Source: a virus
DNA length: 64,000 bases
IMG/VR virus record: IMGVR_UViG_3300021961_010841
Location: 1 to 64,000 of that record
Strand: one strand, 5' to 3'
Below, piece by piece: positions 16,676-40,723 of this stretch. Position 1 is the stretch's first letter; each line of letters starts with the position of its first letter. A model generated the notes under the pieces. The model searched no databases. It was not told where the DNA came from and was given only the letters and a program-made list of their open reading frames with translations. The translations under genes and the position numbers were made by a program.

Positions 16676-16704
16676 ATTATAAAACAAAAATTTACTTTTG
16701 TCTA
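16676..16704 (-). promoter_or_regulatory. Sigma70-like promoter for dsbA-43
   Basis: TAGACA (16699-16704, containing the stop of the gene upstream), 17-nt spacer, TATAAT (16676-16681), then a 21-nt leader with AAGGAG. It would drive the dsbA-like gene, the membrane protein and the polymerase. Confidence 0.65.
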
Positions 16705-16857
16705 TTGTTTTTTTTGCTTTGATGCTTTATCGAACCGGGGGTCGAAATATCTTTTGGATGGTTTGGTTTTGATTAGTTTTAATCCGCGTGAACCTGGTGA
16801 CTGTGGTGAGTGTGTTTGACTTGATGCTGGCAAATTGATCAATTCTACAATTTTCAT
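16702..16857 (-). CDS. Small basic protein with capsid-cargo-like N-terminus
   Basis: 51 aa starting MKIVELINLPASS, then Ser/Pro and Lys/Arg rich. The ATG at 16857 is 5 nt after a late element GGTAAATA; a longer frame to 16908 is less likely. It shares the M-K-I-x-E-L start with ten other proteins here. Probably a late virion-internal protein (inference). Confidence 0.6.
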   Translation of the reverse strand: MKIVELINLPASSQTHSPQSPGSRGLKLIKTKPSKRYFDPRFDKASKQKKQ

Positions 16858-16862
16858 ATAGG

Positions 16863-16870
16863 TATTTACC
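16863..16870 (-). promoter_or_regulatory. Late-promoter-like GGTAAATA
   Basis: Six of eight bases of TATAAATA, 5 nt before the ATG at 16857, inside the 3' end of the upstream gene. Confidence 0.4.
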
Positions 16871-17480
16871 GTATAAAAGCACCGATGCGATGGTTGTATT
16901 CGGGACACTCTATGTATGTGTAACCATCCGGAGGTGTAGTGTCTTGCCCCTGCCAGACAGGAATGAACTCTGTGTTACCATGATCGAAATCAGGATTACA
17001 TCTAAGATGGACTTCGATTAATTTTCCACCTATGAATTCACAATTCATATATTGATATTTTTTAGATATCGTTTTTAGTATTTGCGGGATTTCATGCACA
17101 ACATCAACTTTGATCCATTTCTTCCATTTAGTAAATGATTCAGGATATCTAAAACCCTGCACACTGAGGATAGGATCTCCCCATTCGTAGTCGACGGATA
17201 TATGGTCACCCTCGAATATCTCACACCAAAAAGTTCCTGGTTGAAGATGATCAGTCCAACCTTTCACAGTAAGCCATTGTTCGTATGCTCCCAATCCTAA
17301 TCCCACACAGTTTGTTGTGGGGCGGACTATGTAGAATCCATCGTGTGGCACATCCACTCCGGCAGGACCGCACTGATATCCTAATTTTCTTGACAGGATT
17401 AATTTATCAAAGATCCATAGGTCGTCGGGATCGGTGTTTAACCAAGCCACATCTTCTTCGATTAATTTCCGGGTTACCAT
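16866..17480 (-). CDS. Conserved hypothetical protein, possible ATP-grasp-like
   Basis: 204 aa. NCEFIGGKLIEVHLRCNPDF resembles the C-terminal E..(I)E.N segment of ATP-grasp enzymes, but no nucleotide-binding loop is obvious. It overlaps the 137-aa gene upstream by 7 nt. Function uncertain. Confidence 0.6.
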   Translation of the reverse strand: MVTRKLIEEDVAWLNTDPDDLWIFDKLILSRKLGYQCGPAGVDVPHDGFYIVRPTTNCVGLGLGAYEQWLTVKGWTDHLQPGTFWCEIFEGDHISVDYEWGDPILSVQGFRYPESFTKWKKWIKVDVVHEIPQILKTISKKYQYMNCEFIGGKLIEVHLRCNPDFDHGNTEFIPVWQGQDTTPPDGYTYIECPEYNHRIGAFIR

Positions 17481-17887
17481 TTACGACAAGACCAGTATCG
17501 TGCTTTTGTTCTTGGACCTGGGTTAGCACAGTTGTGTCTTGCTCTAAATGATCTGCGTCTTGCTGGATTTGATTTCTTGATTCTCATGTTGGGGTCACCA
17601 AAATTGACTTTTTTGACGTTGCCTGTCTTGGGATCCTTGACATAAACTTTAAATTTTTTTACATCGCCTCTCATTGGTTTGCCCAATGGAACTTTTCTGC
17701 CTCTGTATTCTGCCTCTTCTATATCTGATAATAATTTGCCTGTGATATCGTCTGTGTAAATCAGAATGTTTTCGCCCCTGACTTCGATGATGGGTGTGTC
17801 TATAGCTAGATCATCGCCGAATTCAAATGTTAAAATATCACCCGCTTGTGGATGTTGTAATTGTAGGTCAAGTTCATTAAGTTTCAT
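17474..17887 (-). CDS. Late basic virion-type protein with Cys-pair C-terminus
   Basis: 137 aa. N-terminus MKLNELDLQLQHP is of the cargo-like type; residues 15-80 form a beta-rich domain; the last 35 residues are Arg-rich with two Cys (RHNCANPGP...YWSCRKW), a tail I associate with small phage structural proteins. It is preceded at 6 nt by a perfect TATAAATA. Probably nucleic-acid binding and packaged in the head (inference). Confidence 0.65.
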   Translation of the reverse strand: MKLNELDLQLQHPQAGDILTFEFGDDLAIDTPIIEVRGENILIYTDDITGKLLSDIEEAEYRGRKVPLGKPMRGDVKKFKVYVKDPKTGNVKKVNFGDPNMRIKKSNPARRRSFRARHNCANPGPRTKARYWSCRKW

Positions 17888-17893
17888 TTGTTG

Positions 17894-18499: not shown

Positions 18500-18721
18500 T
18501 TATTTGGATTCAACTATGGCCACTATGTCTTTGACTCTAACTATGGACTCTGCATGTTGGTCATCGATGGTAATACCAAATTGATCCTCGATGTCCATGA
18601 TGATTTCTAAGCCATCCAAGCTGTCCGCGCCGAGATCATCCACCAAGTGAGATTCCAAAGTAATTTTTGATAGGCTGATACCAAGTCGTTCTGAGATTAT
18701 GTTAAAAATTTTTTCCTGCAT
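18500..18721 (-). CDS. acpP: Acyl carrier protein
   Basis: 73 aa from the ATG at 18721. It has the four-helix carrier pattern and the phosphopantetheine site LGADSLDGLEI with Ser34, followed by IEDQFGITI as in bacterial AcpP. A longer frame to 18823 overlaps the gene upstream and is rejected. Carrier proteins hold acyl or aminoacyl groups as thioesters; no ketosynthase or adenylation enzyme is visible. The substrate could be handed to the nearby GNAT or radical SAM enzymes, or the protein could tap host fatty acid synthesis. Confidence 0.88.
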   Translation of the reverse strand: MQEKIFNIISERLGISLSKITLESHLVDDLGADSLDGLEIIMDIEDQFGITIDDQHAESIVRVKDIVAIVESK

Positions 18722-18728
18722 GGGATAT

Positions 18729-18989
18729 TTACCTTGGATCATTTTCACTGCATTCTTTTTTGCATATGCTGTCACATCTTTCTGATTGCCAATCCGCATC
18801 GTTGAAGTGATCGGTGTAGGCATGGTGACTTAAAATTTCCTTGATGCTGTGCAAGGACAGATCGTTCCAATCTTTTGGTAATTTTTTGAGATAATCACTA
18901 TTGTAGTGTGAATTGGCCACGAAGCAACAAGGCCATAATTTCTTGTCATACTCTATTACCAAACTCTGGGTTTTGCACTTGATGGCCAT
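18729..18989 (-). CDS. SPASM-like cysteine-rich half of a split radical SAM protein
   Basis: 86 aa. KKLWPCCFVAN and the closing C-x3-C-x3-C (ERCDSICKKEC) are the auxiliary-cluster cysteines usually fused behind radical SAM domains, as in the single-chain homologue at 27005-27988. It starts immediately after the stop of 18990-19652 and in the same frame (TAAATG), with GGAGGA 8 nt before its ATG, so it looks like a second subunit made by coupled translation. Confidence 0.75.
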   Translation of the reverse strand: MAIKCKTQSLVIEYDKKLWPCCFVANSHYNSDYLKKLPKDWNDLSLHSIKEILSHHAYTDHFNDADWQSERCDSICKKECSENDPR

Positions 18990-19652
18990 TTAAAAGTCCT
19001 CCATCCATGCGTTGTACTTGTTGACCAATATGTCCTGTTTTTCTTGATCTAATATCCAAGGTTCCTCATCATCATCAAACGGAGGTCTCGTGTTCACTGT
19101 GAACGATATCTCTATGTTGTGTTGACCTGCAAGACGTTTGGCATCATCTACCTGATGATAGTTGTGTGGAAACACTATGAACTGCCATGTCACTTTGCCC
19201 ATTGGCAGTGACTTGGCGCACGCCAGCATGTTGTTCCATGCCTTGTCGAAATCTACTTTCTTCCTGTAGATGTCATTTACTTCAGCGGTGGTGCCATCGA
19301 TGCCGAACACGAACTCGCAATGATCACCGTATTTGGCACAGTCGGAGAACCATTCTTGTTTCCTGATGGCGCCATTGGTGTGTATTCTAAAATTTAATTT
19401 TTTTCCGAACACCAGGTAGTCCAGTATTTCATCGAGGTGTGGATTCATCAATGGATCTCCATAGTCACCGCATATCCTTATGGTCTTGATAGTGTCGGGG
19501 AGGTCTTGGCAAATTTTCTCAAAATCATTTTTGTCTATGTGAAGCAGTCTAAGATTATCTAATCGGAAAGTCCTGTCGCACAACGGACACTCTGCCTGGC
19601 AATAACTTGTTATGCCAACTTCCAGTTCGGAACTAAAATTTTGCCAATCCAT
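18990..19652 (-). CDS. Radical SAM domain protein (first half of split pair)
   Basis: 220 aa. Cluster motif C18-x3-C22-x2-C25 in TSYCQAECPLC, then a GDYGDPLMNP segment and barrel strands ending in FTVNTRPPF. The SPASM half follows after one in-frame TAA. Closely related in layout to 27005-27988, so the split is probably secondary. Substrate unknown; SPASM-type members often act on peptides or carrier-bound groups, and an acyl carrier protein gene lies 270 bp downstream. Confidence 0.82.
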   Translation of the reverse strand: MDWQNFSSELEVGITSYCQAECPLCDRTFRLDNLRLLHIDKNDFEKICQDLPDTIKTIRICGDYGDPLMNPHLDEILDYLVFGKKLNFRIHTNGAIRKQEWFSDCAKYGDHCEFVFGIDGTTAEVNDIYRKKVDFDKAWNNMLACAKSLPMGKVTWQFIVFPHNYHQVDDAKRLAGQHNIEISFTVNTRPPFDDDEEPWILDQEKQDILVNKYNAWMEDF

Positions 19653-19655
19653 GGA

Positions 19656-19907
19656 CTATTTGGTCTTGACGTTCTTTGCAGGGCCTTGTCTGTTCTTGTT
19701 GGGATCTTCTCTGCGTTTGCGTGATGCCGCTGTGGCTCTGCCTTTTTTGCCCAGTGCGTGTGCTTTGGATTGTGGCAGACATTTGGGTTTGCCTTCTGAA
19801 GAAGAACCCCTGGCACAGTCGCCACGGATCTTGCCGTCAGGACCAAACCTTACCCATTTTTCCTTAAACCATTTTTTGAGATTTTCGTCTATTTCGTATA
19901 ACTTCAT
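19656..19907 (-). CDS. Small basic virion-type protein, DUF5872-like
   Basis: 83 aa starting MKLYEIDENLKKW. The body KWVRFGPDGKIRGDCARG with GKPKCLPQ and a Lys/Arg/Asn tail resembles a small basic phage domain I recall as DUF5872. The start at 19907 overlaps the upstream stop (TAATG). It carries the shared N-terminal motif and a Cys pair; probably packaged with DNA. Confidence 0.65.
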   Translation of the reverse strand: MKLYEIDENLKKWFKEKWVRFGPDGKIRGDCARGSSSEGKPKCLPQSKAHALGKKGRATAASRKRREDPNKNRQGPAKNVKTK

Positions 19908-21517
19908 TACTTGCTCTTGTTGCCCCAGTTGGCCGCGCCTTTTTTGCGACACTGCACCAGAGCACCAGAGGCATAAGCTGAAGGCCATACTTTGTATCTT
20001 GCTTTTACTTTATGATAGCAGGCATCCTTTTTGCCTGCCGCTTCGTCAAATTCTTGTTCTGTGATTGCTTTAGATTCTGCGATGGCTTCATTTAAATCTT
20101 TGACAGCATCAACATGTCCTTGCACATATGAATGTTCTGATTCCAATCCCATCATGCCCGCCATGGCCATGATTTGATCAGCTAGATTCTGCATCATAGC
20201 AATGTATTCTGGTTCTGCTTTTTTCATTTCCATGGCATGCTTTTCCATGTAGAATAGCGTGTCATGTAGTTTGGCAGAACGCTCAGCTAAGTCCATATCC
20301 TCAACATCAATGTCTTTGTATAATTGTGTGGCTGAAGGACAAATATCAAAATGTTTGGTTTGGTATGAACCTACCATCACTTCACCTTTGTCGTCATCTT
20401 CTTTGACCTTTTCTTTTTTCTCATCTGATGAGTGTCCAAAATATTTGTGTACCAACCGGTCTAATTCTGTGTGAAAATTGTCGATTGTCTTTTTTGAAAC
20501 TTGTTCCAGTGTGTGTTCTTCACCATCTGATGTTTTGAACTTGGTGCCTTTCTTGGCGCCTGTGGCTTTGAGTTGTCTCACCTTTTGTGCAAACTCATTG
20601 CCTTCTTCTATGATGAGTCCCAGTTCATCCAACTTGTCTACCAACCACACATATGGATCACCATCACGTGCTTTTTGTGTGCCGTATGGCATCATGTCGT
20701 CAGCATCTGATGATGAGAAGTAAGCAAATAATTTTTCATATATGGTTGGAGCATCCATTAGATCTCCTGTGTCCATGAACTTTTTGTATTCGTCTTGATG
20801 TTGTTGAATAATCATTTGAGCATAGCCACGATCTTGATGTTCGTCTTCATACATAGAATTTAAAGTTTTGCTTTTGCCTTTGCCAAGGAAACCTGTGGCG
20901 CCCATGTTTTGTTTGAACCGTTCTGCCGCATCTGGTTCAGCAAAATCCATACCGTCTTGTTGTAGGATGGCTTTGATTTCAATGGGATTCATGTTCAACA
21001 TCTTTGACATGGCAGAAAATATTTCGTCCCAATCCATGTCTGCTTGTGTGCCTGAAGCAAACATTGTTGAAATCAATTCATGGAATCCAGGTGACTGTTT
21101 GATTTTTTCCAGTGACGTAGAATCTTGACCCATAGGGTTAATCAGTTTAGTGAATTGGTCTTTTACATCCTCGCCCACAGCATCCTTGTCCATTCTTCTG
21201 CGTTCTTTGTTGGCATCTTTTTTAATCTGTTTCTTAACCACATTCATTGCTCGCTTGGTCAAAACTTCTGGTTTGGCATCTCTTCCTTTTTGTGTGGGCA
21301 CATCCTGTTCACCTATTAATTTTTGTATGATTCGATTTTGAGCAATTTTTGGATTTTGCTCTGCTATTTTAATTAAAAAATTTCGTGGCATTAGTCCTCT
21401 GGCTTTGGCCATCTCTCTGATGGTTTTTTCGAGATCGAACAGTTTTCCTTGTTTGTTTGATTCCTTTGGTTGCTTGTTTTTCTCGAGTTCTATAAGAATA
21501 TTTTTTAGTATGCCCAT
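19907..21517 (-). CDS. Large late protein with Cys-pair basic C-terminus
   Basis: 536 aa, highly helical and charged. N-terminus MGILKNILIELEKNK; the middle is Met- and Gln-rich; the last 40 residues hold KDACYHKVKARYKVWPSAY and ALVQCRKKGAANWG, a two-Cys basic tail seen on many phage head-associated proteins. It is preceded at 6 nt by a perfect TATAAATA. Likely a virion or prohead-core protein; precise role unknown. Confidence 0.65.
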   Translation of the reverse strand: MGILKNILIELEKNKQPKESNKQGKLFDLEKTIREMAKARGLMPRNFLIKIAEQNPKIAQNRIIQKLIGEQDVPTQKGRDAKPEVLTKRAMNVVKKQIKKDANKERRRMDKDAVGEDVKDQFTKLINPMGQDSTSLEKIKQSPGFHELISTMFASGTQADMDWDEIFSAMSKMLNMNPIEIKAILQQDGMDFAEPDAAERFKQNMGATGFLGKGKSKTLNSMYEDEHQDRGYAQMIIQQHQDEYKKFMDTGDLMDAPTIYEKLFAYFSSSDADDMMPYGTQKARDGDPYVWLVDKLDELGLIIEEGNEFAQKVRQLKATGAKKGTKFKTSDGEEHTLEQVSKKTIDNFHTELDRLVHKYFGHSSDEKKEKVKEDDDKGEVMVGSYQTKHFDICPSATQLYKDIDVEDMDLAERSAKLHDTLFYMEKHAMEMKKAEPEYIAMMQNLADQIMAMAGMMGLESEHSYVQGHVDAVKDLNEAIAESKAITEQEFDEAAGKKDACYHKVKARYKVWPSAYASGALVQCRKKGAANWGNKSK

Positions 21518-21523
21518 GTAAAC

Positions 21524-21531
21524 TATTTATA
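21524..21531 (-). promoter_or_regulatory. T4-type late promoter TATAAATA
   Basis: Perfect TATAAATA, six nucleotides (GTTTAC) before the ATG at 21517. It shares the 79-bp divergent gap with the plus-strand promoter at 21561-21589. Confidence 0.65.
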
Positions 21532-21560
21532 ATATTGCAATTAACACCTGTATTTTTGAA

Positions 21561-21589
21561 TAGACAAAAAACACAAAAATAAGTATAAT
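21561..21589 (+). promoter_or_regulatory. Sigma70-like promoter for the plus-strand SDR gene
   Basis: TAGACA (21561-21566), 17-nt spacer, TATAAT (21584-21589), seven nucleotides, ATG at 21597. No ribosome site fits between. Confidence 0.6.
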
Positions 21590-21596
21590 ATACACA

Positions 21597-22088
21597 ATGA
21601 AATATGCAATAACAGGCCATACGGGACTGGTCGGTGGATTCTTATACAACAATCTTGGTGACTGCGTGGGATTCAGCAGATCCAACGGATTTGATGTCAC
21701 TGATGACGATGCACAAGATAGGATAATTCTTGAATCCTACAAGTGTGATGTGTTCGTCAATTGTGCCCATGCAGGGCCAGGCACATCTCAGACAGACATG
21801 TTGTGGAAGGTTTACAAACGCTGGAAAAATCACAACAAGCACATCATCAACATAGGCACTGACAGGGCATCGCCTCATCTGTGGAGCACGGTCAGACAGG
21901 ACTATCCTTTGGAAAAATCCATATTGGCCACCACAGTTGATCATATCCAGAAACAGCACATCGGCAAATGCAAGGTGTCCATAATAAATCCCAACGTGAT
22001 TGAAAATGACACATTGGTGGACATACTCGGAGCGGTCAAATACATTGTGCAGAGCAGAACTTACATCACCACCGTAAACTTACAATGA
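21597..22088 (+). CDS. NAD(P)-binding SDR/epimerase-like protein
   Basis: 163 aa. The Rossmann loop is at the very N-terminus (YAITGHTGLVGGFL), and VNCAHAGPG and NIGTDRAS follow as in short-chain dehydrogenase/epimerases, but the Y-x3-K pair is not obvious and the protein is shorter than usual. It heads a three-gene plus-strand unit with two oxygenase-like genes. Confidence 0.65.
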   Translation: MKYAITGHTGLVGGFLYNNLGDCVGFSRSNGFDVTDDDAQDRIILESYKCDVFVNCAHAGPGTSQTDMLWKVYKRWKNHNKHIINIGTDRASPHLWSTVRQDYPLEKSILATTVDHIQKQHIGKCKVSIINPNVIENDTLVDILGAVKYIVQSRTYITTVNLQ

Positions 22089-22771
22089 TATTCTGTCCTA
22101 TAGATCTTCCACCCATACCCAACAAGCAATCTATAATCGATGCCTTCGAGGGCGATGAATCATACGCATATTGGAATTTGGAAGTTTTGCTGGGCAACGG
22201 TGAAAATGGCATACGTGACAAGAGCATACCTTTCGGTCCTCCTGGTACATGGAGCCCTTTCGCCAAGAAGTATCCGGATCTCATAGGTTGGATGGAGCAA
22301 CATCTTCCTTATGAGTATTTTTGTTATGTGACCATCGGTAGGAGCCAGTCGGATGTTTGGCCGCACGTGGATGGTTGTGAGTCGTCTTTCGACAGTGATG
22401 TGAGACTGAGGCACCATACAACCATGGAGCAATGGTTGGTCGATCATCATGTAAACAACGAACCTTCGGGTTACAGATTGATAGTGTCGGGATCACGTGA
22501 CAAGCTCTATCTCTGCAAGGATTATGATCCCACCTTCAAAAACAAAAGCATACTCCAACAACCAAAAACATACACATATGTTCCTGATGACACAGATGTC
22601 TACGCAATAAGCCATCAATCACAGCCCCACGGAGTGGACATAGACGAACAAGAAAAAAAGGAAAGATTGACTGTGTTTGTGATGGGCAAAGTAAATATCG
22701 ACCAACACCAAGAACTCTTGACAAGAAGCAAAAATAAGTATAAAAAGTATACAGTAGATCATGTTAATTAG
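22085..22771 (+). CDS. Asp/Asn hydroxylase-like 2OG oxygenase
   Basis: 228 aa. DVWPHVDGC gives the H-x-D, GYRLIVSGSRD the central strand, QPHGVD the distal His and KERLTVFV the Arg, the order found in aspartyl/asparaginyl beta-hydroxylase-type proteins. ATGA overlap with the SDR gene. Substrate unknown. Confidence 0.65.
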   Translation: MIFCPIDLPPIPNKQSIIDAFEGDESYAYWNLEVLLGNGENGIRDKSIPFGPPGTWSPFAKKYPDLIGWMEQHLPYEYFCYVTIGRSQSDVWPHVDGCESSFDSDVRLRHHTTMEQWLVDHHVNNEPSGYRLIVSGSRDKLYLCKDYDPTFKNKSILQQPKTYTYVPDDTDVYAISHQSQPHGVDIDEQEKKERLTVFVMGKVNIDQHQELLTRSKNKYKKYTVDHVN

Positions 22772-26502: not shown

Positions 26503-26531
26503 ATTATAAACGATTTAGTTGGATATTTCTA
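26503..26531 (-). promoter_or_regulatory. Sigma70-like promoter before the GNAT gene
   Basis: TAGAAA (26526-26531), 17-nt spacer, TATAAT (26503-26508), six nucleotides (TGTTAA), ATG at 26496. The -35 is weak, but the spacing repeats the arrangement seen before queE, the J-protein and the secreted enzymes. Confidence 0.45.
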
Positions 26532-26783
26532 TCTTTTTATTGTCGCACCAAAGAAAGAAACATTAGAGTCCAGTGCGTTGTCTGTTGGTTTTTGTTTTTT
26601 TGGTTTTGGTTGTGGGGGAGATTTTGTGCCTGATTTACCCGGCGAACCTATGTAAGATTTCTTACCTCTGGCCGGTCCTGGTGATAGATGGGGGTTGACC
26701 ACTGAGGCTATGTTGCCGGAAGAAGTCGCGCCTGCTGTGGCTTGCTCGGATACTTTACGTTCAAAAATTTCTCTCATCTTCAT
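26529..26783 (-). CDS. Small Pro/Lys-rich virion-type protein
   Basis: 84 aa, MKMREIFERKVSE then a low-complexity Gly/Ser/Pro/Lys body (PGKSGTKSPPQPKPKKQ). It has the shared N-terminal motif and is basic. I recall similar small proteins in T4-like marine phages, role unknown. Confidence 0.65.
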   Translation of the reverse strand: MKMREIFERKVSEQATAGATSSGNIASVVNPHLSPGPARGKKSYIGSPGKSGTKSPPQPKPKKQKPTDNALDSNVSFFGATIKR

Positions 26784-26787
26784 ACTG

Positions 26788-26988
26788 TTACTTATTCCTT
26801 CCAGATTTCATGTTGGCGCACCAGTGATACATTTTCGCTCGTTCACCTGATGCTTTTTTAGCTTTTGCCCTCAATGATGTCACAGAACCCTTGCAGGATG
26901 CACCTGCTCGCTTCACTCTGCCCGGACGACTTTTACCCTTTTTTTTACCGTCAGCAAAGTTTTCTGCAATAATTTCTTGAATCTTCAT
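26788..26988 (-). CDS. Small basic Cys-pair protein with IAE cleavage-like N-terminus
   Basis: 66 aa. MKIQEIIAENFADG closely resembles the cleaved N-termini of T4 internal proteins (MKTYQEFIAE). The rest is Lys/Arg/Ser-rich with C-KGSVTSLRAKAKK and YHWCANMKSGR. A late element AGTAAATA stands 6 nt before the ATG. Probably a DNA-binding capsid internal protein (inference). Confidence 0.7.
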   Translation of the reverse strand: MKIQEIIAENFADGKKKGKSRPGRVKRAGASCKGSVTSLRAKAKKASGERAKMYHWCANMKSGRNK

Positions 26989-28680: not shown

Positions 28681-29289
28681 ATGACGGGAAAACGCTTTGT
28701 AGATGCTGTTTTGAACACACCGATAGACAGCACACCTTGGGATCATCAAATAGTCCAAGACACCCTGCCAGATCTTATGTTCCAACAGTTAGTGGATCAA
28801 TGCAAACAATTTTTGGACATGGAAACTGATGGCCAACTCAAGTTCATCATGCCCGAGGATTTCACCGGATATGGCATAACCTTGTATGACGAAATCCGAG
28901 ACGTGGCTCAACACATTTATGACAACGCAAAGGCATTGACCAAAGGATTGTACTACAAGCCACGTTGGTATCCCGACCACACTGTGTATGCCTACATCTC
29001 GATCACACCACCACTGCCCTATCGTTTTGAAATACACGAAGAAAAACAATCCAAATTCTGGAGCAGTGTGACTTACATCACTCCCCAGAAAAATGTTGGA
29101 ACCAAGATGTATGAAACCAAAGACCCCAGCACATTTGTGAAGGAATCACCTTGGGTTCCAAACTCAACATTTGTGTTCTGTGGCAAGAAAGGCAACACCT
29201 GGCATTCATATGAAAGCAGTCAAACTTCAAATAGAATCACACTCAATTTTTTCTTGATGGATGCCCAGGGTGGAAGATATCTAATCTAA
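28681..29289 (+). CDS. 2OG oxygenase-like protein
   Basis: 202 aa. RFEIHEEKQSKFWSSVTYI has the H-x-E and first core strand, NSTFVFCGKKGNTWHSYE the distal His, and SNRITLNFFLM the Arg strand. The start MTGKRF at 28681 is preferred over the longer frame because the promoter and the divergent gene start lie upstream. Its stop overlaps the 55-aa gene on the other strand by 4 bp. Confidence 0.62.
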   Translation: MTGKRFVDAVLNTPIDSTPWDHQIVQDTLPDLMFQQLVDQCKQFLDMETDGQLKFIMPEDFTGYGITLYDEIRDVAQHIYDNAKALTKGLYYKPRWYPDHTVYAYISITPPLPYRFEIHEEKQSKFWSSVTYITPQKNVGTKMYETKDPSTFVKESPWVPNSTFVFCGKKGNTWHSYESSQTSNRITLNFFLMDAQGGRYLI

Positions 29290-29453
29290 CTTACAGATTT
29301 TGATTTGGTTGAACTGCCTGACTGACGTTTTTTCCTACCAGCACAATGAGCTCGCTGTGAAAATCCTTTTGGATTAGAACAATTTATTGATTTCTTGTAC
29401 TTCTTGGTCCATGCCTCTAACAGTTCAACTGTGTAGAGTTCGGCAAGATGCAT
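29286..29453 (-). CDS. Small basic Cys-pair protein (55 aa)
   Basis: Read from the gap: MHLAELYTVELLEAW, then KKSINCSNPKGFSQRAHC and a Lys/Arg/Ser tail. The C-SNPKGFSQRAHC-x-GRKK pattern is a small basic two-Cys tail of a kind I recall in other phage virion proteins. ATG at 29453 overlaps the upstream stop (TAATG). It has the shared N-terminal motif (M-H-L-x-E-L). Confidence 0.65.
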   Translation of the reverse strand: MHLAELYTVELLEAWTKKYKKSINCSNPKGFSQRAHCAGRKKRQSGSSTKSKSVS

Positions 29454-31313: not shown

Positions 31314-32384
31314 TTATTCCTGGTCTGATGCTTGTTTTTTCATGTATGTAGCAAGGTTTTTGAACAGAGAACCGCCCTCTATGAACAGTCTGTGCCTGCC
31401 AGGTCGATGTGACTTCGGTGCAATCATGTTGTACCTCACCACCATCAAAAGTCCTGCTTTTGCGCCAAGATTTTTGTCATAAACATATAGTTCGGGTTGT
31501 TGTGAAGTTGCAGTTTGTTTCTTGAGTGCAACATCCAAATCGACATTTTGTAAGTTTTTCAGCAGTAATTCGAATTTGAGTGTGCTGAACGCTCCATCTT
31601 CCACATCAACAAGGATTAAATCGTCGCCCCCGGTCATGGCAGACTTGACAAAGTCGATCATATTACCAACAAATTTTCTTTCCTGAGAGTCATTGTCGGC
31701 CGCCAACTGTGTCTTGAGCTGTGCCTCGGCTTGTTTGAACATGGAAGAAAATTCTTTGGTGGCGCTCTTGGTACGGTCAAATTCTTTGTATCTGGTCACA
31801 TCGATGTTGACACCGAGATTGCTGAAATACTGCTTTGCTGTCGCCAACGTGTTGACATCTTTGTTGTCCAGCCTCGGACTGTATGTCTTGGCGCTGATGC
31901 CGTGGAGTCTTTTTTGAGAACCGTCCGGTTGCACATATATTAGTGCCACATCAGTTTTGGATCTTTCACCGCCCATCTGTTTGACGAGCACTTTGTCGGG
32001 CTTGCCATTTGTGGCGTATTTCTTGGCCAATTTCACGGAAACTTCGTCCGAGTTTGCAAACATGATGTCGCCTGCAAGCTGTCCTACCATCTTCACTAAA
32101 TTTTCTGGTTCTTGGATGTCTTTGCCCAGCGTTTCTCCGGTGTCACCTATGACGATCTCTATGGGATCACCTTCCGGGTTCCTGCCAGTGATTCTTCTAT
32201 CAGGGTTTTTCCTCAACATAGACATCAGTTCTTCTACGTGTTTTCGCTCAACCGGTGCTTGTCCCCTGAAAAATTTTGCACCAACAGCCAATGCCAGCAA
32301 CACTTCGTTGAAAACTCCCCTGGTGGTTCCGTGTACCAGCTTATTGGATTCGGATTCATTGATGTTGAATTCTTCTAATCTCAC
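31314..32384 (-). CDS. Conserved hypothetical protein, possible nuclease-like fold
   Basis: 356 aa with a GTG start that overlaps the upstream stop as GTGA. MRLEEFNINESES is of the shared cargo type. KTDVALIYV...HGISAKTY could be the D..(S/E)xK core of a PD-(D/E)xK-type nuclease, but the match is partial. Unknown otherwise. If packaged it would be the largest of the motif-bearing cargo candidates. Confidence 0.6.
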   Translation of the reverse strand: MRLEEFNINESESNKLVHGTTRGVFNEVLLALAVGAKFFRGQAPVERKHVEELMSMLRKNPDRRITGRNPEGDPIEIVIGDTGETLGKDIQEPENLVKMVGQLAGDIMFANSDEVSVKLAKKYATNGKPDKVLVKQMGGERSKTDVALIYVQPDGSQKRLHGISAKTYSPRLDNKDVNTLATAKQYFSNLGVNIDVTRYKEFDRTKSATKEFSSMFKQAEAQLKTQLAADNDSQERKFVGNMIDFVKSAMTGGDDLILVDVEDGAFSTLKFELLLKNLQNVDLDVALKKQTATSQQPELYVYDKNLGAKAGLLMVVRYNMIAPKSHRPGRHRLFIEGGSLFKNLATYMKKQASDQE

Positions 32385-32506
32385 TTCTTGAGGCCTTTGC
32401 TGGGATCACGCACTAATATAACCTTGCCATTTTTGGTCTTTACACGATATGGATAACGCAACACAGACGGATGATGTCCCATTTTCACAATCTCTTTCAG
32501 TCGCAT
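32381..32506 (-). CDS. Small basic protein (41 aa) with cargo-like N-terminus
   Basis: MRLKEIVKMGHHPSVLRYP followed by a Lys/Arg-rich body ending RDPSKGLKK. Late element ATTAAATA 5 nt upstream; its stop is coupled to the GTG of the next gene. Too short to place in a family. Confidence 0.6.
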   Translation of the reverse strand: MRLKEIVKMGHHPSVLRYPYRVKTKNGKVILVRDPSKGLKK

Positions 32507-32703: not shown

Positions 32704-32940
32704 ATGGCTACAAAAAACTTTAGAGTGCATAACGGACTCGACATCGTCGGTACTGATATCAAGATAAACAACGCTGTTATCGTAAAAGATAGCTCTGGCA
32801 CTTTATTAGTGAGAAATGCTGACGACTCTGCGGCAGCCAATCTCACAGCAGCTACTGTGGCGGCGAGTAGCGTAACTATAAACGGCATCACAGCGGCTAC
32901 CACAGACGATGCCACAGCATTAAGCATAGCGTTAGGATAA
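32704..32940 (+). CDS. Small virion structural protein
   Basis: 78 aa, MATKNFRVHNGLDIVG, then Ala/Thr/Ser-rich. The first segment resembles the attachment start of marine phage fibre proteins. AAGGAG 11 nt before the ATG. First gene of the plus-strand structural run. Confidence 0.6.
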   Translation: MATKNFRVHNGLDIVGTDIKINNAVIVKDSSGTLLVRNADDSAAANLTAATVAASSVTINGITAATTDDATALSIALG

Positions 32941-32947
32941 AAAGGAC

Positions 32948-34683: not shown

Positions 34684-34684
34684 C

Positions 34685-35083
34685 ATGGCATACTTAGGAA
34701 ATACACCAACAGTAGGAGCTTTCAGAAAGATGGACTCCATCCAGGCTTCTTTTGATGGGTCGACCACACAGTTCACAATCCAAGTGGGAGGTTCAGACTA
34801 CCAACCACAGAACGCAAATGTGATCATGTGTGCTAAGAACGGAGTTTTATTAGAACCGGGCGTAGATTTCACAGTGACTGACGCAACATTCACTTTTACT
34901 ACTGCTCCAACTAATGGACAGACTTTTTTTGCAGTAATTTTAGGAGACGTGTTGGACACTGGTACACCATCAGACAACACAGTGACCAATGCAAAAATCG
35001 TAAACAACACAATCCAAAGAGGCAAGTTCTCTGCGGCACTAAACGGTAAATTACTGGGAGACAGTATAGTATTCGGAGTATAA
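34685..35083 (+). CDS. Virion structural protein
   Basis: 132 aa. MAYLGNTPTVGAFRK and FDGSTTQFTIQVGG match in type the first domain of 33286-34683, ending in NTIQRGKFSAALNGK. It could be the truncated or separate partner of the larger fibre. Confidence 0.65.
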   Translation: MAYLGNTPTVGAFRKMDSIQASFDGSTTQFTIQVGGSDYQPQNANVIMCAKNGVLLEPGVDFTVTDATFTFTTAPTNGQTFFAVILGDVLDTGTPSDNTVTNAKIVNNTIQRGKFSAALNGKLLGDSIVFGV

Positions 35084-35089
35084 AAAACA

Positions 35090-38000
35090 ATGGCAAGAAA
35101 ACAAATAAGATATTATGTGTTCACACCAGGAGGAGTTGGAACTGGCACGGTCAAATTCTCGGGAACATATGAAAAGAAAGACATTTTAGTTATCTACAAC
35201 ACAACAGATAACATCAACATCTACAACTTCTCAGACTCAGGCCTGGGGGGAACTGTGTCAACATCTCAAGCAGTGGATTCGGATTTTCCGGAATCACAGG
35301 ATGGTGTTACCACAGTAACGCTTGACTACAACACTTCATCCATGAGTGCCGGCGATGAGCTGTTGATATATGTAGAAAATCAAGAATTCACAATCATACC
35401 TTACGCTTTCGGCGTTGACGCTGTTGAGCGTATGAGGGTGTCCAATCCGGAAGCACTACTTGACGCTGACTTCGAATACGGTCTCCAGAACACAAAATGG
35501 CAGTCAGTGGTGACAGTTTCAGACAGACCAGGTCTGTACGAGTTTGCTGGATCGGATCTTAGATTACCTGAAGCAGGTTACGTCACTCATCTTGCCGCTG
35601 ACAACACCATTGGGTCTGCAGGTGACACATCCATCGCTCTTTCTAACCAAGAGACTGGCGACACACCATGGGCCAACAACGACTATGGTTGTTTGATGAC
35701 AGTTTCGGGCACAACCAACTACAGCACAGCAGCTGTTTTAGGAGCCACAGGCAGAACATTCTCTGTGGCAGACTCATCAGGATTCACTGTAGGCGACTAT
35801 GTGATCATGTATGACAATCCTGATTCAGGTGATTCATCATTCGTGGGATCAACCGTTTCCACAAACATCACATCCACAGGAACTACATCCGTTAACTTAG
35901 CATCTGGCACAGGTTTCTCGGACGGTGACTACATCATGGTGCAGACAGACACATCGAATGTGTATGAGATCATGGCTGTATCTGCCAAGTCGACAAACAC
36001 ATTGACTGTGACCAGACAGGTCAACGGTTCTAATGCCGCTGGAGCAAACATCACATCAGGCAACACAGCCAGAAGAATCAACAAGTTGGAGATCGGTAAG
36101 ATCTTCTCCATAGATTCTGCCACACAGTTGACCATCAACAGAGGTCAGTTCAACACAGAACCTTTGCCATCTTACTCGGCTGGTACTGTGATCGCAGAAA
36201 TTTCTGCAACTAGAGAAATTGTCAAAATGACATCCACATCACGTTCAGTGAACGGTGCTCAGACCATCAGCAGAGGTGCTTTGGGAACATCAGCACTGTC
36301 ATCAGCGGGAGTGGGATCACTGTTGGTTTACCTAACAGGTGTGTTCGACAACGGTAATGCCAACCTTCCACAGGTGGGCGTACACATTTCAGCACACGGT
36401 TTGACCGCTGAATCTTACATTTCCATCCAGGAATTGGCAGACACAGATGCCAACGGTAGATACTTCATCCACAATGCGGAGACCAACTATTTCTTCTACT
36501 ATCCAAAAAGAGCAACAGGACTGACAGCGGGTGATGTTTTAAACACATCGTCTACGTCAGTTAGACAAGCGGGCAGATACACAGGTGCTCAATTGAACTT
36601 GGCGGACACCACTCCGATCGCGTCAGATGGATCAACACCTTCGACCATAACTGTCACAACCAAGACAGCACACGGCATGCAACCAGGCAACTTGGTGTTG
36701 GTGCAGTTGAACTCTGCAACCAATGAAGAATATGCCGAAGGATCATTTCCTATACTTACGATACCTTCACCCACAACATTCACATACCAAGCCAAAGGCG
36801 GTGCGGCAGTGAGTGGCACGCTGACAGGTACGATCACGGTCAAGGACAACACTTTCTTCGTACACAGACCGTTCGACGGTGGTGTGTTGATTGGTAACGG
36901 AACACCATCGCATGGTTCGTTGGCATCAAGACAGTCAAGAAAATACTTTAGATACCAGTCAGGTAAGGGTCTCGTGTTCAGCACAGGTTCGATCCTGTGT
37001 CCGACATTTGACATCACAACTCTGTCATCAGACTCCACAGGCAGTGGCGAAGCCAACATCACAGTGGTGTTGGACAGATACCATGGCTTGAACGCTGGTG
37101 CCACAGTGAACATATCAGGCATCACAACTTCAGGTTGGAACGGTGACTATGTGGTCGAATCCATCGTGTCAGACACATCATTCATCATAGAAGCACAAGC
37201 GGCACTGGATTCCACACAGCCAGAACTTGGTTCAGAGCCAAGGTGTACTGTCAAGAATTGGTACGGTTCTTCCATCCAATTGGGACTTTTCGATGACCAA
37301 AATGGCACATTATTCGAATATGACGGTGTCACAATCAATGTGGTCAAGAGAAGATCCACACTTCAACTCGCAGGTACTGTGAGCGTGGAAGCGGATTCCA
37401 CAGAAGTAACTGGTGACGGTGACTGCAGATTCACAGAACAGTGTAAAGTATCAGATCAAGTGATCATCAGGGGAATGACACACACCATCCAGCAGATCAC
37501 AGACAACAACACATTGATCGTTTCGCCTGCTTTCAGAGGCAGAAGAAACCAACAGAACGTTAAATTGACACTGATCGAAGAACAGCGTATTCCACAGAGC
37601 AAGTGGAACATCGACAAGTGTGATGGCACAGGTCCTTCAGGATTCGTGTTCGATGTCACAAAGATGCAGATGTTTTTCATCGAGTACACATGGTACGGTG
37701 CTGGTTACATCCAATACGGCATGAGAGGCCAGGGCGGCAAGTACCTACACTGTCACAGAATCAAGAACAACAACGTGAACTACGAAGCATACATGCGTTC
37801 AGGTAACACACCTGTCAAGTATTGTGTGACCAACACTGCGGGTAGATCCAGATTGGTTGGCGACATTGAGGCAGGATCGACCACGCTGACTGTTGTGGAT
37901 GCCACACACTTTCCAACAGCATCAGTGGCGAATCCAGTACACATCGGCATCAACAATGAAGTGATCCGATACACAGGCAAGTCTGGCAACAATCTAACAG

Positions 38001-38737
38001 GATTGACTCGATCAGCCACACTGACACAATGGTCAGATGGTCAGTTGAGATCTTTCACTAAGGGTTCAGCTGCCGGTCACGCAGATGGTGATGGTGTTTA
38101 TCTGATAGGTAACACTTGTACACCGACTGTGTCACACTGGGGATCTGCGTTGATCATGGACGGTGGTTTCCAAACAGACAGAGGTTACAACTTTACGATC
38201 AACGTGCAGAACTTCTCAACTTCGGGTTCAGCGGACAGAACCATCATCGTGATGAGATTGGCTCCATCGGTTTCGAACTCGATCACTGGTGACATAGGTG
38301 ACAGGGACTTGGTCAACAAGGCGCAGTTGCTCCTAAACTTCCTAAGGATCAACGTGTCAGGACGAAGATATCTGATCACAGGTGAATTGAACTCCACAAA
38401 CATCGATGCTGAGAACACACAATGGCAGGGATTAGACACAGAGGCGAACGGTTTCCAACCATCCTTCGTGCAGTACGCTGACCCCAATGACATTGCTTTC
38501 ACAGATGGCGGCATTGCGGCCACAGGTGGTGAGCGTGTGTTTGCGATACCGGTCAACACTACCAACTCTGGTACATTAGATCTGTCATCTATTAAGGAAC
38601 TGGCAGCTTCGGCCATACCGGGCAGAGGTGTTTACCCAGATGGTCCTGAGATTTTGGCTATCAACATTCGACCAACAACGAGATCGGGTTCAGGATCTTG
38701 TGACGTGCAGATATCGTTCCAAGAAACACAAGCATAA
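35090..38737 (+). CDS. Large virion structural protein (1215 aa)
   Basis: 1215 aa, beta-rich, the largest gene here. It begins MARKQIRYYVFTPGGVG and has many DGD/GDY turns (GFTVGDYVIMY, GFSDGDYIMVQ, DATHFPTASV) that look like repeated small beta domains, then SSIKELAASAIPGRGVYPDG near the end. Probably a tail, neck or fibre-associated protein; no catalytic motif seen. A strong terminator follows. Confidence 0.65.
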   Translation: MARKQIRYYVFTPGGVGTGTVKFSGTYEKKDILVIYNTTDNINIYNFSDSGLGGTVSTSQAVDSDFPESQDGVTTVTLDYNTSSMSAGDELLIYVENQEFTIIPYAFGVDAVERMRVSNPEALLDADFEYGLQNTKWQSVVTVSDRPGLYEFAGSDLRLPEAGYVTHLAADNTIGSAGDTSIALSNQETGDTPWANNDYGCLMTVSGTTNYSTAAVLGATGRTFSVADSSGFTVGDYVIMYDNPDSGDSSFVGSTVSTNITSTGTTSVNLASGTGFSDGDYIMVQTDTSNVYEIMAVSAKSTNTLTVTRQVNGSNAAGANITSGNTARRINKLEIGKIFSIDSATQLTINRGQFNTEPLPSYSAGTVIAEISATREIVKMTSTSRSVNGAQTISRGALGTSALSSAGVGSLLVYLTGVFDNGNANLPQVGVHISAHGLTAESYISIQELADTDANGRYFIHNAETNYFFYYPKRATGLTAGDVLNTSSTSVRQAGRYTGAQLNLADTTPIASDGSTPSTITVTTKTAHGMQPGNLVLVQLNSATNEEYAEGSFPILTIPSPTTFTYQAKGGAAVSGTLTGTITVKDNTFFVHRPFDGGVLIGNGTPSHGSLASRQSRKYFRYQSGKGLVFSTGSILCPTFDITTLSSDSTGSGEANITVVLDRYHGLNAGATVNISGITTSGWNGDYVVESIVSDTSFIIEAQAALDSTQPELGSEPRCTVKNWYGSSIQLGLFDDQNGTLFEYDGVTINVVKRRSTLQLAGTVSVEADSTEVTGDGDCRFTEQCKVSDQVIIRGMTHTIQQITDNNTLIVSPAFRGRRNQQNVKLTLIEEQRIPQSKWNIDKCDGTGPSGFVFDVTKMQMFFIEYTWYGAGYIQYGMRGQGGKYLHCHRIKNNNVNYEAYMRSGNTPVKYCVTNTAGRSRLVGDIEAGSTTLTVVDATHFPTASVANPVHIGINNEVIRYTGKSGNNLTGLTRSATLTQWSDGQLRSFTKGSAAGHADGDGVYLIGNTCTPTVSHWGSALIMDGGFQTDRGYNFTINVQNFSTSGSADRTIIVMRLAPSVSNSITGDIGDRDLVNKAQLLLNFLRINVSGRRYLITGELNSTNIDAENTQWQGLDTEANGFQPSFVQYADPNDIAFTDGGIAATGGERVFAIPVNTTNSGTLDLSSIKELAASAIPGRGVYPDGPEILAINIRPTTRSGSGSCDVQISFQETQA

Positions 38738-38755: not shown

Positions 38756-38784
38756 AAGGGCGCAGGAAACTGTGCCCTTTTTTT
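38756..38784. terminator. Rho-independent terminator, probably bidirectional
   Basis: A 10-bp stem (AAGGGCGCAG / CTGTGCCCTT, one G-T pair) with a GAAA loop and seven T. It ends the plus-strand structural block. On the minus strand the flank reads TTCTTAATTTT, so it can also end the 38783-39046 unit, whose stop codon lies in the T-run. Confidence 0.85.
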
Positions 38785-39046
38785 ATGACTGGAGTTCTAA
38801 TGGAGAGTCGATATCGTCTTCCATGTTCCACGCACCACACCCTATCTGTTCCAATAGATATCCTGGATAAGCAAGTTGCACTGAAGTGGACATGGCCATG
38901 GACACATCTGGATTTGCCAAGGCCATTTGGCATTGTTCGAGAGTGTCGAAGATTAATCTTTCATAGCGAGGATTCAGTTTTTCACCATTTGGTCCGATCA
39001 TAACAGCAGTGATCATGTAAACGATTAGAGATATTTTTGTTATCAA
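38783..39046 (-). CDS. Hypothetical protein with signal-like N-terminus
   Basis: 87 aa. The frame uses a TTG that overlaps the upstream stop as TTGA, with GGGAG just upstream; an ATG start at 39016 is an alternative. The N-terminal 20 residues are hydrophobic, then polar with two Cys. Function unknown. Confidence 0.5.
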   Translation of the reverse strand: MITKISLIVYMITAVMIGPNGEKLNPRYERLIFDTLEQCQMALANPDVSMAMSTSVQLAYPGYLLEQIGCGAWNMEDDIDSPLELQS

Positions 39047-39516
39047 TTTGCTCCCACGTGTGTGGCCCCCATTGCTTGGCCATCACGTGCGATCTGATTC
39101 ATCTGTTTGATAACTCTGTTGTAGTAGCCTTCTGGTTTGCCCCCGCCTATCATGGTGGGTCCGCCCGGGTTTTGATCAACTTGATCTGGTACTTCTTTGG
39201 ATGGTTTGCCTAAATTTTTTTGCAACCATTGTGTGGTCCTTGCGATGAATTCGCTTATAGGTATGTTGTCATCAACATCATAACCTATGACGTCAAATAT
39301 GTCATACCAACTCATGTTGGACAAGTGTAAATCATGCTCTTCTTTGTACTTAGGATTAACGTGGTCCTTGTGATCTCCTTTGAAATCATGTTTGTAGACA
39401 TCATCCTGGTATTGTGATTCGTCACCAGTTACCATCATCCAATATCCTTTTTGGGGGTCTTTCTTGTATGCATGGAAACTCATGCCCTCGTTGATCTGGA
39501 ATTCTAAGAATCGCAT
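39043..39516 (-). CDS. Late protein with cargo-like N-terminus
   Basis: 157 aa from MRFLEFQINEGMSF at 39516, five nt after AATAAATA; the longer frame to 39618 overlaps the HAD gene and is rejected. Rich in His/Asp/Lys/Tyr in the middle, Gly/Pro-rich linker, helical end. No family recognised. Confidence 0.6.
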   Translation of the reverse strand: MRFLEFQINEGMSFHAYKKDPQKGYWMMVTGDESQYQDDVYKHDFKGDHKDHVNPKYKEEHDLHLSNMSWYDIFDVIGYDVDDNIPISEFIARTTQWLQKNLGKPSKEVPDQVDQNPGGPTMIGGGKPEGYYNRVIKQMNQIARDGQAMGATHVGAN

Positions 39517-39521
39517 AAAAA

Positions 39522-39529
39522 TATTTATT
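39522..39529 (-). promoter_or_regulatory. Late-promoter-like AATAAATA
   Basis: Seven of eight bases of TATAAATA, five nucleotides (TTTTT) before the ATG at 39516, overlapping the end of the HAD gene. Confidence 0.5.
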
Positions 39530-40064
39530 TTTTTGAGAAAGCTGTTTTGAGCTGATCGATGGTTTGGTTTATGGTTCCGTTGCTGTGATGTATGCCTATT
39601 CCGCCAGCATTCCGCCATGATTTGATGTTGTAGCCGAAGTCATCGATGAGAACATTGGGTGTTCCATCTGCCTGCACAGCATATTTTCCCTTGTCGGCTG
39701 TGGCCGGCATGATGATGGTCTTTTGGGGTTTGATGGGCAACTTGTTGACCCATTGTTTTTTCTGTTCAACCACCCTGCTGTCTCCAGCGAGTGCCTTGCT
39801 CAATATGGTGTAATTGCCATCTGCTATGGCCGATATGGCCGACATCAATCTCGGCACGTCTGACAGCACACCCAAGTTTATCCAAAAATCCTTCTGCTTG
39901 GTGATGTCCTTCAGCACCTGGCTGACTGTATCCTTTGAGGCATCTTTCCACGATGCCACACCTGCCATCTTGTTGAATGGGCCGTAAAAATCCGCCAACA
40001 CACCATCCATGTCCACATACAAAATGGGCGATTTAACCGTGGTTTCTAACTCATACAAGTTCAT
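39525..40064 (-). CDS. HAD-superfamily 5'(3')-nucleotidase-like protein
   Basis: 179 aa. ILYVDMDGVLADFYG (residues 14-28) is HAD motif I with both catalytic Asp, and LIDDFGYNIKSW is motif IV. Similar phage proteins act as deoxyribonucleotidases or polynucleotide 3'-phosphatases. N-terminus MNLYELETTVKSP is of the cargo type, ahead of the HAD strand. It overlaps the nucleotidyltransferase gene (ATGA). Confidence 0.78.
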   Translation of the reverse strand: MNLYELETTVKSPILYVDMDGVLADFYGPFNKMAGVASWKDASKDTVSQVLKDITKQKDFWINLGVLSDVPRLMSAISAIADGNYTILSKALAGDSRVVEQKKQWVNKLPIKPQKTIIMPATADKGKYAVQADGTPNVLIDDFGYNIKSWRNAGGIGIHHSNGTINQTIDQLKTAFSKK

Positions 40065-40723
40065 TTTAGGCGCAGTGCTTTCATTATCTTGCCCAGTGTT
40101 TTTTTATTAACATCGGGTGTTGTGTTCTGTTTGGTAACAATACCAACACCAGCGGCTTCTTCTTTGACACCCATACCAGTTCTCACTGCCTTGTAGATAT
40201 TTTTCTTCAACCCTTCGTTGCCCACAAACATTTTCTTGAATGTTTCATAGTCACCAGCCACCGCCGCTTCACGTGCCTTACTTGCTGAGACACCCGTAAC
40301 ACCTTCGGAGTCTGGATCTCTGTCGCCCGCTGATATCACATCGATAGAATCAAAGTTGTATTCCTGTCCATTGTATTTTGCTAACAAGTCGTTGAATGCT
40401 TTGGTTCTATCTGAACCCACCACCATGGCCACTCGCTTGTGTCCTGCTTGTTGTAAAAATTTCATCACATCGATGATGGTTCTTATGCTGGGGTCATTGA
40501 TGATATGATCGCCTGCTTCTGGAAATTGCTTATTAATTATTGCTATCTTTTGATCCCTGTTCAGTGGATTTTTCTTAGGATCTTGTGTGGGCGAAACAAA
40601 CACAAAGTAGACATCGCTTACTGTTTTGACTTTGTCAAACAATTTTTTGTGTCCTATGGTAGGTGGATTGAATCTACCGAACACGAACGCCGCTGTGGGA
40701 TTATCTACCTCTATTAATTTCAT
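40061..40723 (-). CDS. Nucleotidyltransferase (NMNAT/cytidylyltransferase superfamily)
   Basis: 220 aa. AFVFGRFNPPTIGHKKLF contains the (T/H)xGH nucleotide-binding motif, and GVSASKAREAAVAGD the second ISxTxxR-like motif. The last 50 residues form a basic tail. N-terminus MKLIEVDNPTA is of the cargo type. It could make NAD, CDP or other nucleotide derivatives; substrate unknown. It forms a pair with the HAD gene. Confidence 0.78.
   Translation of the reverse strand: MKLIEVDNPTAAFVFGRFNPPTIGHKKLFDKVKTVSDVYFVFVSPTQDPKKNPLNRDQKIAIINKQFPEAGDHIINDPSIRTIIDVMKFLQQAGHKRVAMVVGSDRTKAFNDLLAKYNGQEYNFDSIDVISAGDRDPDSEGVTGVSASKAREAAVAGDYETFKKMFVGNEGLKKNIYKAVRTGMGVKEEAAGVGIVTKQNTTPDVNKKTLGKIMKALRLK

What the first reader, a model, noticed from the sequence alone, without database searches (positions are those of the whole stretch)
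16702..40723. Shared N-terminal motif on 11 proteins: candidate capsid-targeting signal for diverse cargo
Proteins starting at 16857, 17887, 19907, 26783, 26988, 29453, 32506, 32384, 39516, 40064 and 40723 begin M-[KRNH]-[ILFM]-x-E-[LIFV] (MKIVEL, MKLNEL, MKLYEI, MKMREI, MKIQEI, MHLAEL, MRLKEI, MRLEEF, MRFLEF, MNLYEL, MKLIEV). Otherwise they are unrelated: tiny basic proteins, a HAD nucleotidase, a nucleotidyltransferase and a 356-aa unknown. Most lie in late-promoter units. T4 internal proteins use a similar cleaved N-terminus (MKTYQEFIAE), and MKIQEIIAENF at 26988 is very close to it. The hypothesis is that the phage packages these and injects them with its DNA.
Basis: partly seen in the sequence, partly recalled or inferred. 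Interest (0 to 1): 0.78.

Follow-up and report, generated by a model that had tools for sequence, protein, structure and literature searches.

The report
Phage cargo tagged for head packaging
Eleven otherwise largely unrelated proteins of an uncultured marine T4-like phage begin with the same short peptide, which looks like the removable tag that T4 uses to load proteins into its head, so a phage's injected cargo may be readable directly from its genome.

Summary
Eleven of 98 genes in this 68-kb marine T4-like phage fragment start M-[KRNH]-[ILFM]-x-E-[LIFV]; shuffles give 0.07, with 0 hits at 489 internal Met and 365 decoy ORFs. All lie in one region. Relatives keep it (79/786 starts versus 1/4542 internal Met), while 258 genes from other contigs of relatives have none. 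Codons vary while residues hold, and leaders change before conserved mature domains. This fits a T4-type capsid-targeting propeptide cut at (L/I)-x-E.

Independent support: homologs of the cytidylyltransferase (40061-40723) are reported in virions of S-SM1, S-SCSM1 and S-CREM2; the last two carry T4-form leaders (MKSFLQFLKE|A, MKNFSSFLTE|A). In S-CREM2, T4-form leaders mark 5/26 non-structural virion proteins versus 2/167 undetected (p=5e-4). T4 gp24, cut after residue 10, begins MAKINELLRE|S. A syntenic 219-kb relative encodes a gp21-type protease. Late promoters head the units.

Not shown: packaging, cleavage or injection in this phage, or where its short leader is cut. I call it a new variant of a known kind: it works like the T4 tag, with different cargo.

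The parts
16702..16857 (-). 51-aa basic protein, leader MKIVEL; late-type TAAATA 5 nt upstream of ATG
   Evidence: many homologs with the motif (MKLIELGID..., MKIKEIINV...) in relatives
17474..17887 (-). 137-aa protein, leader MKLNEL, phrog_7595 (unknown function); TATAAATA 6 nt upstream
   Evidence: homologs MNFDELKHQ...
19656..19907 (-). 83-aa basic protein, leader MKLYEIDE; WFKEKWVRFGPDGKIRG module (the Sf-CH8 hit region is annotated DUF6321)
   Evidence: leader exchange in relatives
26529..26783 (-). 84-aa basic protein, leader MKMREIFERKVSE before QATAGATSSGN
   Evidence: homologs MRIKEILE|QATAGA, MKMHEIFE|QATAGA
26788..26988 (-). 66-aa basic protein, leader MKIQEIIAE (closest to T4 MKTYQEFIAE); TAAATA 6 nt upstream
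29286..29453 (-). 55-aa basic protein, leader MHLAEL (second h-x-E at LLE, residues 11-13)
   Evidence: homolog MKLHELYTVELLEKW in L024
31314..32384 (-). 356-aa protein of unknown fold, GTG start, leader MRLEEFNINE
   Evidence: no family or relative found; model unusable
32381..32506 (-). 41-aa basic protein, leader MRLKEI; TAAATA 5 nt upstream
39043..39516 (-). 157-aa protein, leader MRFLEFQINE; TAAATA 5 nt upstream
   Evidence: homolog MRLHEFKQINE|GMSFH in G008
39525..40064 (-). 179-aa NT5C-type 5' deoxynucleotidase, leader MNLYEL ahead of the DxD core
   Evidence: homologs with other leaders in HTVC008M and Melnitz
40061..40723 (-). 220-aa cytidylyltransferase/NMNAT-like protein, leader MKLIEV ahead of the FGRFNPPT core
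   Evidence: homologs reported in virions of S-SM1, S-SCSM1, S-CREM2
19907..21517 (-). Possible further cargo: 536-aa protein starting MGILKNILIE (T4-like spacing, no K2), TATAAATA 6 nt upstream, phrog_727
   Evidence: weak, background rate of this looser pattern is 4-10%

Best explanation
The shared start is a short N-terminal capsid-targeting propeptide. It is made late and, I infer, recognised by the prohead core through two hydrophobic residues three apart (positions 3 and 6 here; 4 and 7 in T4). It loads diverse cargo into the prohead: small basic proteins, a nucleotidyltransferase, a deoxynucleotidase and others. A gp21-type protease then cuts after Glu at an (L/I)-x-E site, either E5 itself or the second h-x-E where one follows. 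The freed cargo stays with the DNA and probably enters the host with it. Shown: the motif, its restriction to one region, protein-level conservation, late promoters, leader exchange, a gp21-type gene in a syntenic relative. Published for homologs: virion presence of the nucleotidyltransferase. Inferred: recognition, cleavage in this phage, injection.
For: Enrichment and location. E5 always Glu with both codons while position 3 uses 12 or more codons. Second [LIVMF]-x-E within residues 6-14 in 22/63 leaders versus 5.3 by shuffle. Leader exchange before conserved mature parts. T4 IpII/IpIII MKTYQEFIAE, Alt MELITELFDE and gp24 MAKINELLRE; gp24 loses its first 10 residues to the prohead protease (PMC9958956); gp21 rule L/I-x-E and targeting residues 4 and 7 (PMC9026906). 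Nucleotidyltransferase in virions of S-SM1, S-SCSM1 and S-CREM2, leaders MKSFLQFLKE|A and MKNFSSFLTE|A. S-CREM2: T4-form leader in 5/26 non-structural virion proteins versus 2/167 undetected, p = 5e-4. 49/67 nucleotidyltransferase starts in marine contigs match a T4-like leader versus 2/418 control starts, followed by A, S or E in 50/57. gp21 in 8/8 named relatives and in syntenic G023. Late promoters.
Against: No proteome of this phage or a close relative. gp21 is not on this 68-kb fragment. The exact window motif does not mark virion proteins in S-CREM2 (1/52 versus 1/167); only the longer T4 form does. In S-SCSM1 one of two T4-form proteins is not marked as a virion protein, and most virion proteins of its cargo block lack a leader. 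Both proteome papers note possible contamination. No clear enrichment in Atu_ph07. For several members the only (L/I)-x-E is at residues 3-5, giving an unusually short leader with a hydrophobic residue after the cut. The leader patterns were written after seeing examples.
Confidence: 0.77

Rival explanations
1. Virion docking signal that is not a cleaved T4-type tag: the leader binds another virion or assembly component (portal, scaffold or tail) and is retained.
For: Many members have no T4-like site at residues 8-10; only 22/63 have a second h-x-E. The invariant E5 is not required in cyanophage leaders such as MKSFLQFLKE, so it may serve binding.
Against: Every member contains (L/I/F/M)-x-E at 3-5; longer homologs end in E followed by A, S or E, as expected of a protease site; T4 gp24 with K-I-x-E-L is cut.
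Confidence: 0.12
2. Expression signal: the start reflects translation of nearly leaderless late mRNAs or codon bias at late genes, not a protein tag.
For: Late promoters lie 4-7 nt before ATG at many of these genes and AT-rich starts are common.
Against: Genes with the same promoter lack the motif (MGILKN, MSDHNH, MHDENL, MPVTAI), and motif genes inside operons lack the promoter. Codons vary while residues hold.
Confidence: 0.03
3. Common descent: a leader-bearing gene was copied and fused repeatedly, and the leader has no present function.
For: Several small basic proteins share modules and are joined by clustering; modules occur fused in many orders.
Against: The nucleotidase, nucleotidyltransferase and 356-aa protein are unrelated to them and carry it. 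Leaders diverge yet keep the motif before near-identical mature parts (MNLTEFIFELDE versus MRLLELIEIEE before GTRCWKGYERKG), which implies selection.
Confidence: 0.04
4. Targeting to another place in the infected cell (membrane, replication centre or host protein) rather than the head.
For: A short hydrophobic-basic start could do this in principle; no localisation data exist for this phage.
Against: No transmembrane-length stretch in the leaders; homologs of a tagged protein are found in purified virions.
Confidence: 0.04

Closest known systems
T4 capsid targeting sequence (IpI, IpII, IpIII, Alt propeptides)
   Same: N-terminal, short, basic residue 2 in the Ips, two hydrophobic residues three apart, (L/I)-x-E, shared by otherwise unrelated late proteins.
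   Different: One residue shorter with E fixed at position 5; often no second site; cargo not recognised as T4 Ip or Alt; packaging and cleavage unproven here.
T4 gp24 propeptide (MAKINELLRE|S)
   Same: Contains K-I-x-E-L and ends in h-x-x-E before S; removed by gp21.
   Different: gp24 is a capsid vertex protein, not cargo; its leader has an extra Ala after Met.
Virion-associated cytidylyltransferase/NMNAT of cyanophages (T4-GC190; S-SM1, S-SCSM1, S-CREM2)
   Same: Homologous enzyme with a leader ahead of the same core; reported in virions.
   Different: Cyanophage leaders have the longer T4 form. The passages I read from these papers do not mention a targeting sequence.
Processed head proteins of phiKZ-like giant phages
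   Same: Many head proteins with propeptides cut after Glu by a gp21-like protease (PMC9026906).
   Different: Specificity S/A-x-E; this phage is T4-like by its polymerase.

Membership tests
T4-type capsid targeting sequence (functional kind) | Short N-terminal sequence shared by otherwise unrelated proteins | tested here: met
   11/98 window genes; several families in relatives
T4-type capsid targeting sequence (functional kind) | (L/I)-x-E cleavage site at the end of a 10-19-residue propeptide | tested here: inconclusive
   h-x-E at 3-5 in all (fixed by the motif); a second site in 22/63 only, so most are shorter than the T4 case
T4-type capsid targeting sequence (functional kind) | Hydrophobic or aromatic targeting residues three apart (T4 residues 4 and 7) | tested here: met
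   Positions 3 and 6 hydrophobic in all 11; part of the motif itself, so not independent
T4-type capsid targeting sequence (functional kind) | gp21-type prohead protease in the same genome | tested here: inconclusive
   Not on the 68-kb fragment; present in syntenic G023 and 8/8 named relatives
T4-type capsid targeting sequence (functional kind) | Late expression with the head genes | tested here: met
   Late-type promoters before or at the head of the units; sequence evidence only
T4-type capsid targeting sequence (functional kind) | Tagged proteins present in the virion | not testable with these tools
   No proteome of this phage; published for homologs of one of the 11
T4-type capsid targeting sequence (functional kind) | Propeptide removed by the protease; sufficient to package a foreign protein | not testable with these tools
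   Needs experiment
T4 internal protein families (IpI-III, Alt) | Mature protein homologous to IpI, IpII, IpIII or Alt | tested here: not met
   Pfam and PHROG scans find no such family for the scanned members
Phage cytidylyltransferase family (for 40061-40723) | CTP_transf_like domain and FGRFNPPTxGH core | tested here: met
   PF01467 above cut-off, phrog_3041 E=3.5e-56, alignment
NT5C 5' deoxynucleotidase (for 39525-40064) | NT5C domain | tested here: met
   PF06941 above cut-off, phrog_2643 E=3e-24

The most novel reading that the evidence does not exclude
Marine T4-like phages share a sequence-readable packaging tag, in a long T4 form and a short form that may be cut after residue 5, which defines a large injected proteome (NAD and nucleotide enzymes, small basic proteins, and in S-CREM2 a SAM hydrolase, a kinase and a Cas9) that can be predicted from genomes alone.
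Probability: 0.5. Interest if true: 0.78.

Novelty: new variant of a known kind. Interest (0 to 1): 0.63.

Why it matters
It is unclear which proteins marine phages carry into their hosts: cyanophage proteomics repeatedly finds enzymes such as cytidylyltransferases in virions, and the authors cannot tell cargo from contaminants. A leader that separates packaged from undetected proteins in one published proteome turns this into a prediction testable from sequence, and would explain how unrelated enzymes are recruited to the head. It also extends the T4 targeting principle to a widespread group of uncultured marine phages with a shorter leader and different cargo. Two limited literature searches found no report of such a tag in marine phages.

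Tried and rejected
Megablast of the region against named phages: no match. Relatives of the 356-aa protein: none; PDB search gave only a chance-level ferritin hit; AlphaFold model unusable (pLDDT 37), so its function stays unknown. gp21 and gp23 in the window record and 22 related contigs: none, except a gp23-like match on a 68-aa ORF in G005 that I do not interpret. The exact window motif as a virion marker in S-CREM2 failed. S-SCSM1 as a replicate of the leader test had only two T4-form proteins, one of them in the virion: too few. Atu_ph07 shows no clear enrichment, so the short form is not a general jumbo-phage feature. Expression or codon-bias explanation rejected. Conserved h-x-E before each WFKxKW module considered as polyprotein cleavage; not claimed, because the E belongs to the module in other phages too.
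Full report
What the window is. The window is 64 kb of a 68,342-base virus record. It has a T4-type DNA polymerase at 13553-16108 whose closest named relatives are Sinorhizobium phage Phosso (49%) and Agrobacterium phage Atu_ph07 (45%). Many IMG/VR contigs carry a polymerase 86-96% identical, so this is one of a common uncultured group. I called genes over the full record with my own script (98 genes after two hand additions and one removal). All 11 proposed starts are there, on the minus strand.

Is it more than chance? Eleven of 98 starts match M-[KRNH]-[ILFM]-x-E-[LIFV]. Composition shuffles give 0.07 (maximum 3 in 20,000); internal methionines give 0/489 and decoy ORF starts 0/365. The pattern was fitted to these proteins, so relatives are the fairer test: 79 of 786 gene starts versus 1 of 4542 internal methionines. 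The relatives include near-duplicates, but 56 distinct 18-nt starts remain. All 11 lie in one stretch of 33 genes. Four long contigs of relatives have none in 258 genes, and replication genes recognised in the window (polymerase, clamp loader, exonuclease) lack it.

A protein-level signal. Among the 56 distinct starts, position 3 uses at least 12 codons and residue 2 is K, R, N or H, while residue 5 is Glu with both codons (the amino-acid classes are fixed by the pattern, the codon spread is not). Leaders change while mature parts stay. Before GTRCWKGYERKGFKTMFGKRVPNC the leader is MNLTEFIFELDE in one contig and MRLLELIEIEE in another. Before QATAGAT it is MRIKEILE, MKMHEIFE, MKFKEIVE or, in the window, MKMREIFERKVSE. 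The WFKxKW module of 19656-19907 is 80-98% conserved, while its leader is MKLYEIDE, MKVAEIVNE, MKVAEIVTE or MRIEEIVTE, or is replaced by fusion to other modules. A second hydrophobic-x-Glu follows within residues 6-14 in 22 of 63 leaders against 5.3 by shuffling.

Comparison with T4. I read the T4 record: IpII and IpIII begin MKTYQEFIAE, IpI MKTFKEF, Alt MELITELFDE and gp24 MAKINELLRE. gp24 loses its first 10 residues to the prohead protease (PMC9958956). A review (PMC9026906) states that gp21 cuts after L/I-x-E, that the Ip propeptides of 10-19 residues target the core, and that targeting depends mainly on residues 4 and 7 and processing on 8 and 10. The window leader fits with one residue fewer: MK-IQEIIAE aligns with MKTYQEFIAE, and gp24 itself contains K-I-x-E-L.

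Independent evidence for packaging. The nucleotidyltransferase (40061-40723) has homologs in cyanophages, pelagiphage HTVC008M and Methylophilales phage Melnitz; in most of those read it lies in a block between the gp41 helicase and gp61 primase genes. It is reported in purified virions of S-SM1 (PMC3037559), S-SCSM1 (PMC9602691) and S-CREM2 (PMC10665884). The last two begin MKSFLQFLKE|A and MKNFSSFLTE|A. I translated all 219 annotated S-CREM2 proteins. A T4-form pattern occurs in 5 of 26 non-structural virion proteins (SAM hydrolase MKDFDSFLEE, kinase VKRFDAFLTE, the cytidylyltransferase, ORF13 MKDLHSFLTE, ORF136 MQTFSMFFSE) and in 2 of 167 undetected proteins (p = 5e-4). The virion-detected Cas9 has the same element further in (RFASFMAE|A). 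The gp23 proteins of S-CREM2 and S-SCSM1 contain LLTE|A and FLAE|A near the region where T4 gp23 is cut (the cut point is my inference). In 80 further contigs, 49 of 67 nucleotidyltransferase starts match a T4-like leader, against 2 of 418 control starts, and the residue after the Glu is A, S or E in 50 of 57. Short starts such as MFLRELFE|A, MRLRQIFE|A and MKVYQIVE|A occur among them and link the long form to the window form. The nucleotidase homologs of HTVC008M and Melnitz also have extra N-terminal residues, MKSIVEVTSINE|E in Melnitz.

Limits of that evidence. The leader patterns were written after seeing examples. In S-SCSM1 a second T4-form protein was not marked as a virion protein, and most virion proteins of the block have no such leader. 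The window-form pattern alone does not mark S-CREM2 virion proteins. Both proteome papers warn that abundant non-structural proteins may contaminate virions. Atu_ph07 shows no clear enrichment.

Protease. The 68-kb record has no gp21, which says little because it is a fragment. The same profile finds gp21 in all eight named phages tested and at the end of the 219-kb contig G023. G023 carries short-form leaders (MFLSQLFE|S on its nucleotidyltransferase, MKITDIIKRPDLTE|D, MRIYDLNPVVNE|D) close to a DnaJ and a Clp-type gene, as in the window.

Expression. A T4-late-like TAAATA lies 4-7 nt before the start of 13 window genes, five of them motif genes, with the same sharp spacing in relatives. The motif is not part of the promoter context: other genes share the promoter without the motif, and motif genes inside units lack the promoter.

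Mechanism and confidence. I think the leader is a capsid-targeting propeptide (0.77). Which Glu is cut in the short form is open. Injection is plausible by analogy with T4 but untested. Ten of the 11 have a mature pI of 9.0-10.9 (one 5.4), against a median of 5.8 for the other genes, which would suit association with packaged DNA; that is inference. It works like the T4 tag. The cargo is not in the T4 internal-protein families, and two defining features of the tag, removal in the virion and sufficiency for packaging, could not be tested.

Noticed in passing
window, 13 gene starts, e.g. 17887, 26988, 32506, 39516, 40970, 46653, 64908: T4-late-like TAAATA lies only 4-7 nt before the start codon, with no Shine-Dalgarno match at most of these genes, so late mRNAs may be nearly leaderless; the spacing (mostly 5-6 nt) recurs at many gene starts of relatives.
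   Followed up: partly
window 18500-28000: An acyl-carrier-type protein (18500-18721, PP-binding) and three radical-SAM proteins (18990, 24116, 27005) lie between the cargo genes; possibly a small modification pathway.
   Followed up: no
S-CREM2 OR473000, ORF12 (L092:7704-10313): A Cas9-like nuclease reported in the virion carries a T4-like leader element (RFASFMAE|A), suggesting that this phage packages and may inject it.
   Followed up: partly
L225-L302, small basic module proteins: The WFKxKW and CWKGY modules occur fused in many orders, with a hydrophobic-x-Glu before each WFKxKW copy; possibly polyproteins cut in the head.
   Followed up: partly
S-SCSM1 ORF93 (L105:41627-41836): A small virion protein ends in RTFKEFLEYIE, like a targeting leader placed at the C-terminus.
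   Followed up: no
window 32704-38737, + strand: A plus-strand block with a 1215-aa virion structural protein (phrog_5838) interrupts the minus-strand region and carries no motif.
   Followed up: partly
window 43208-45772: 854-aa protein matching a PHROG annotated as protease (phrog_3677, E=3e-48); not a gp21 match, role unknown.
   Followed up: no
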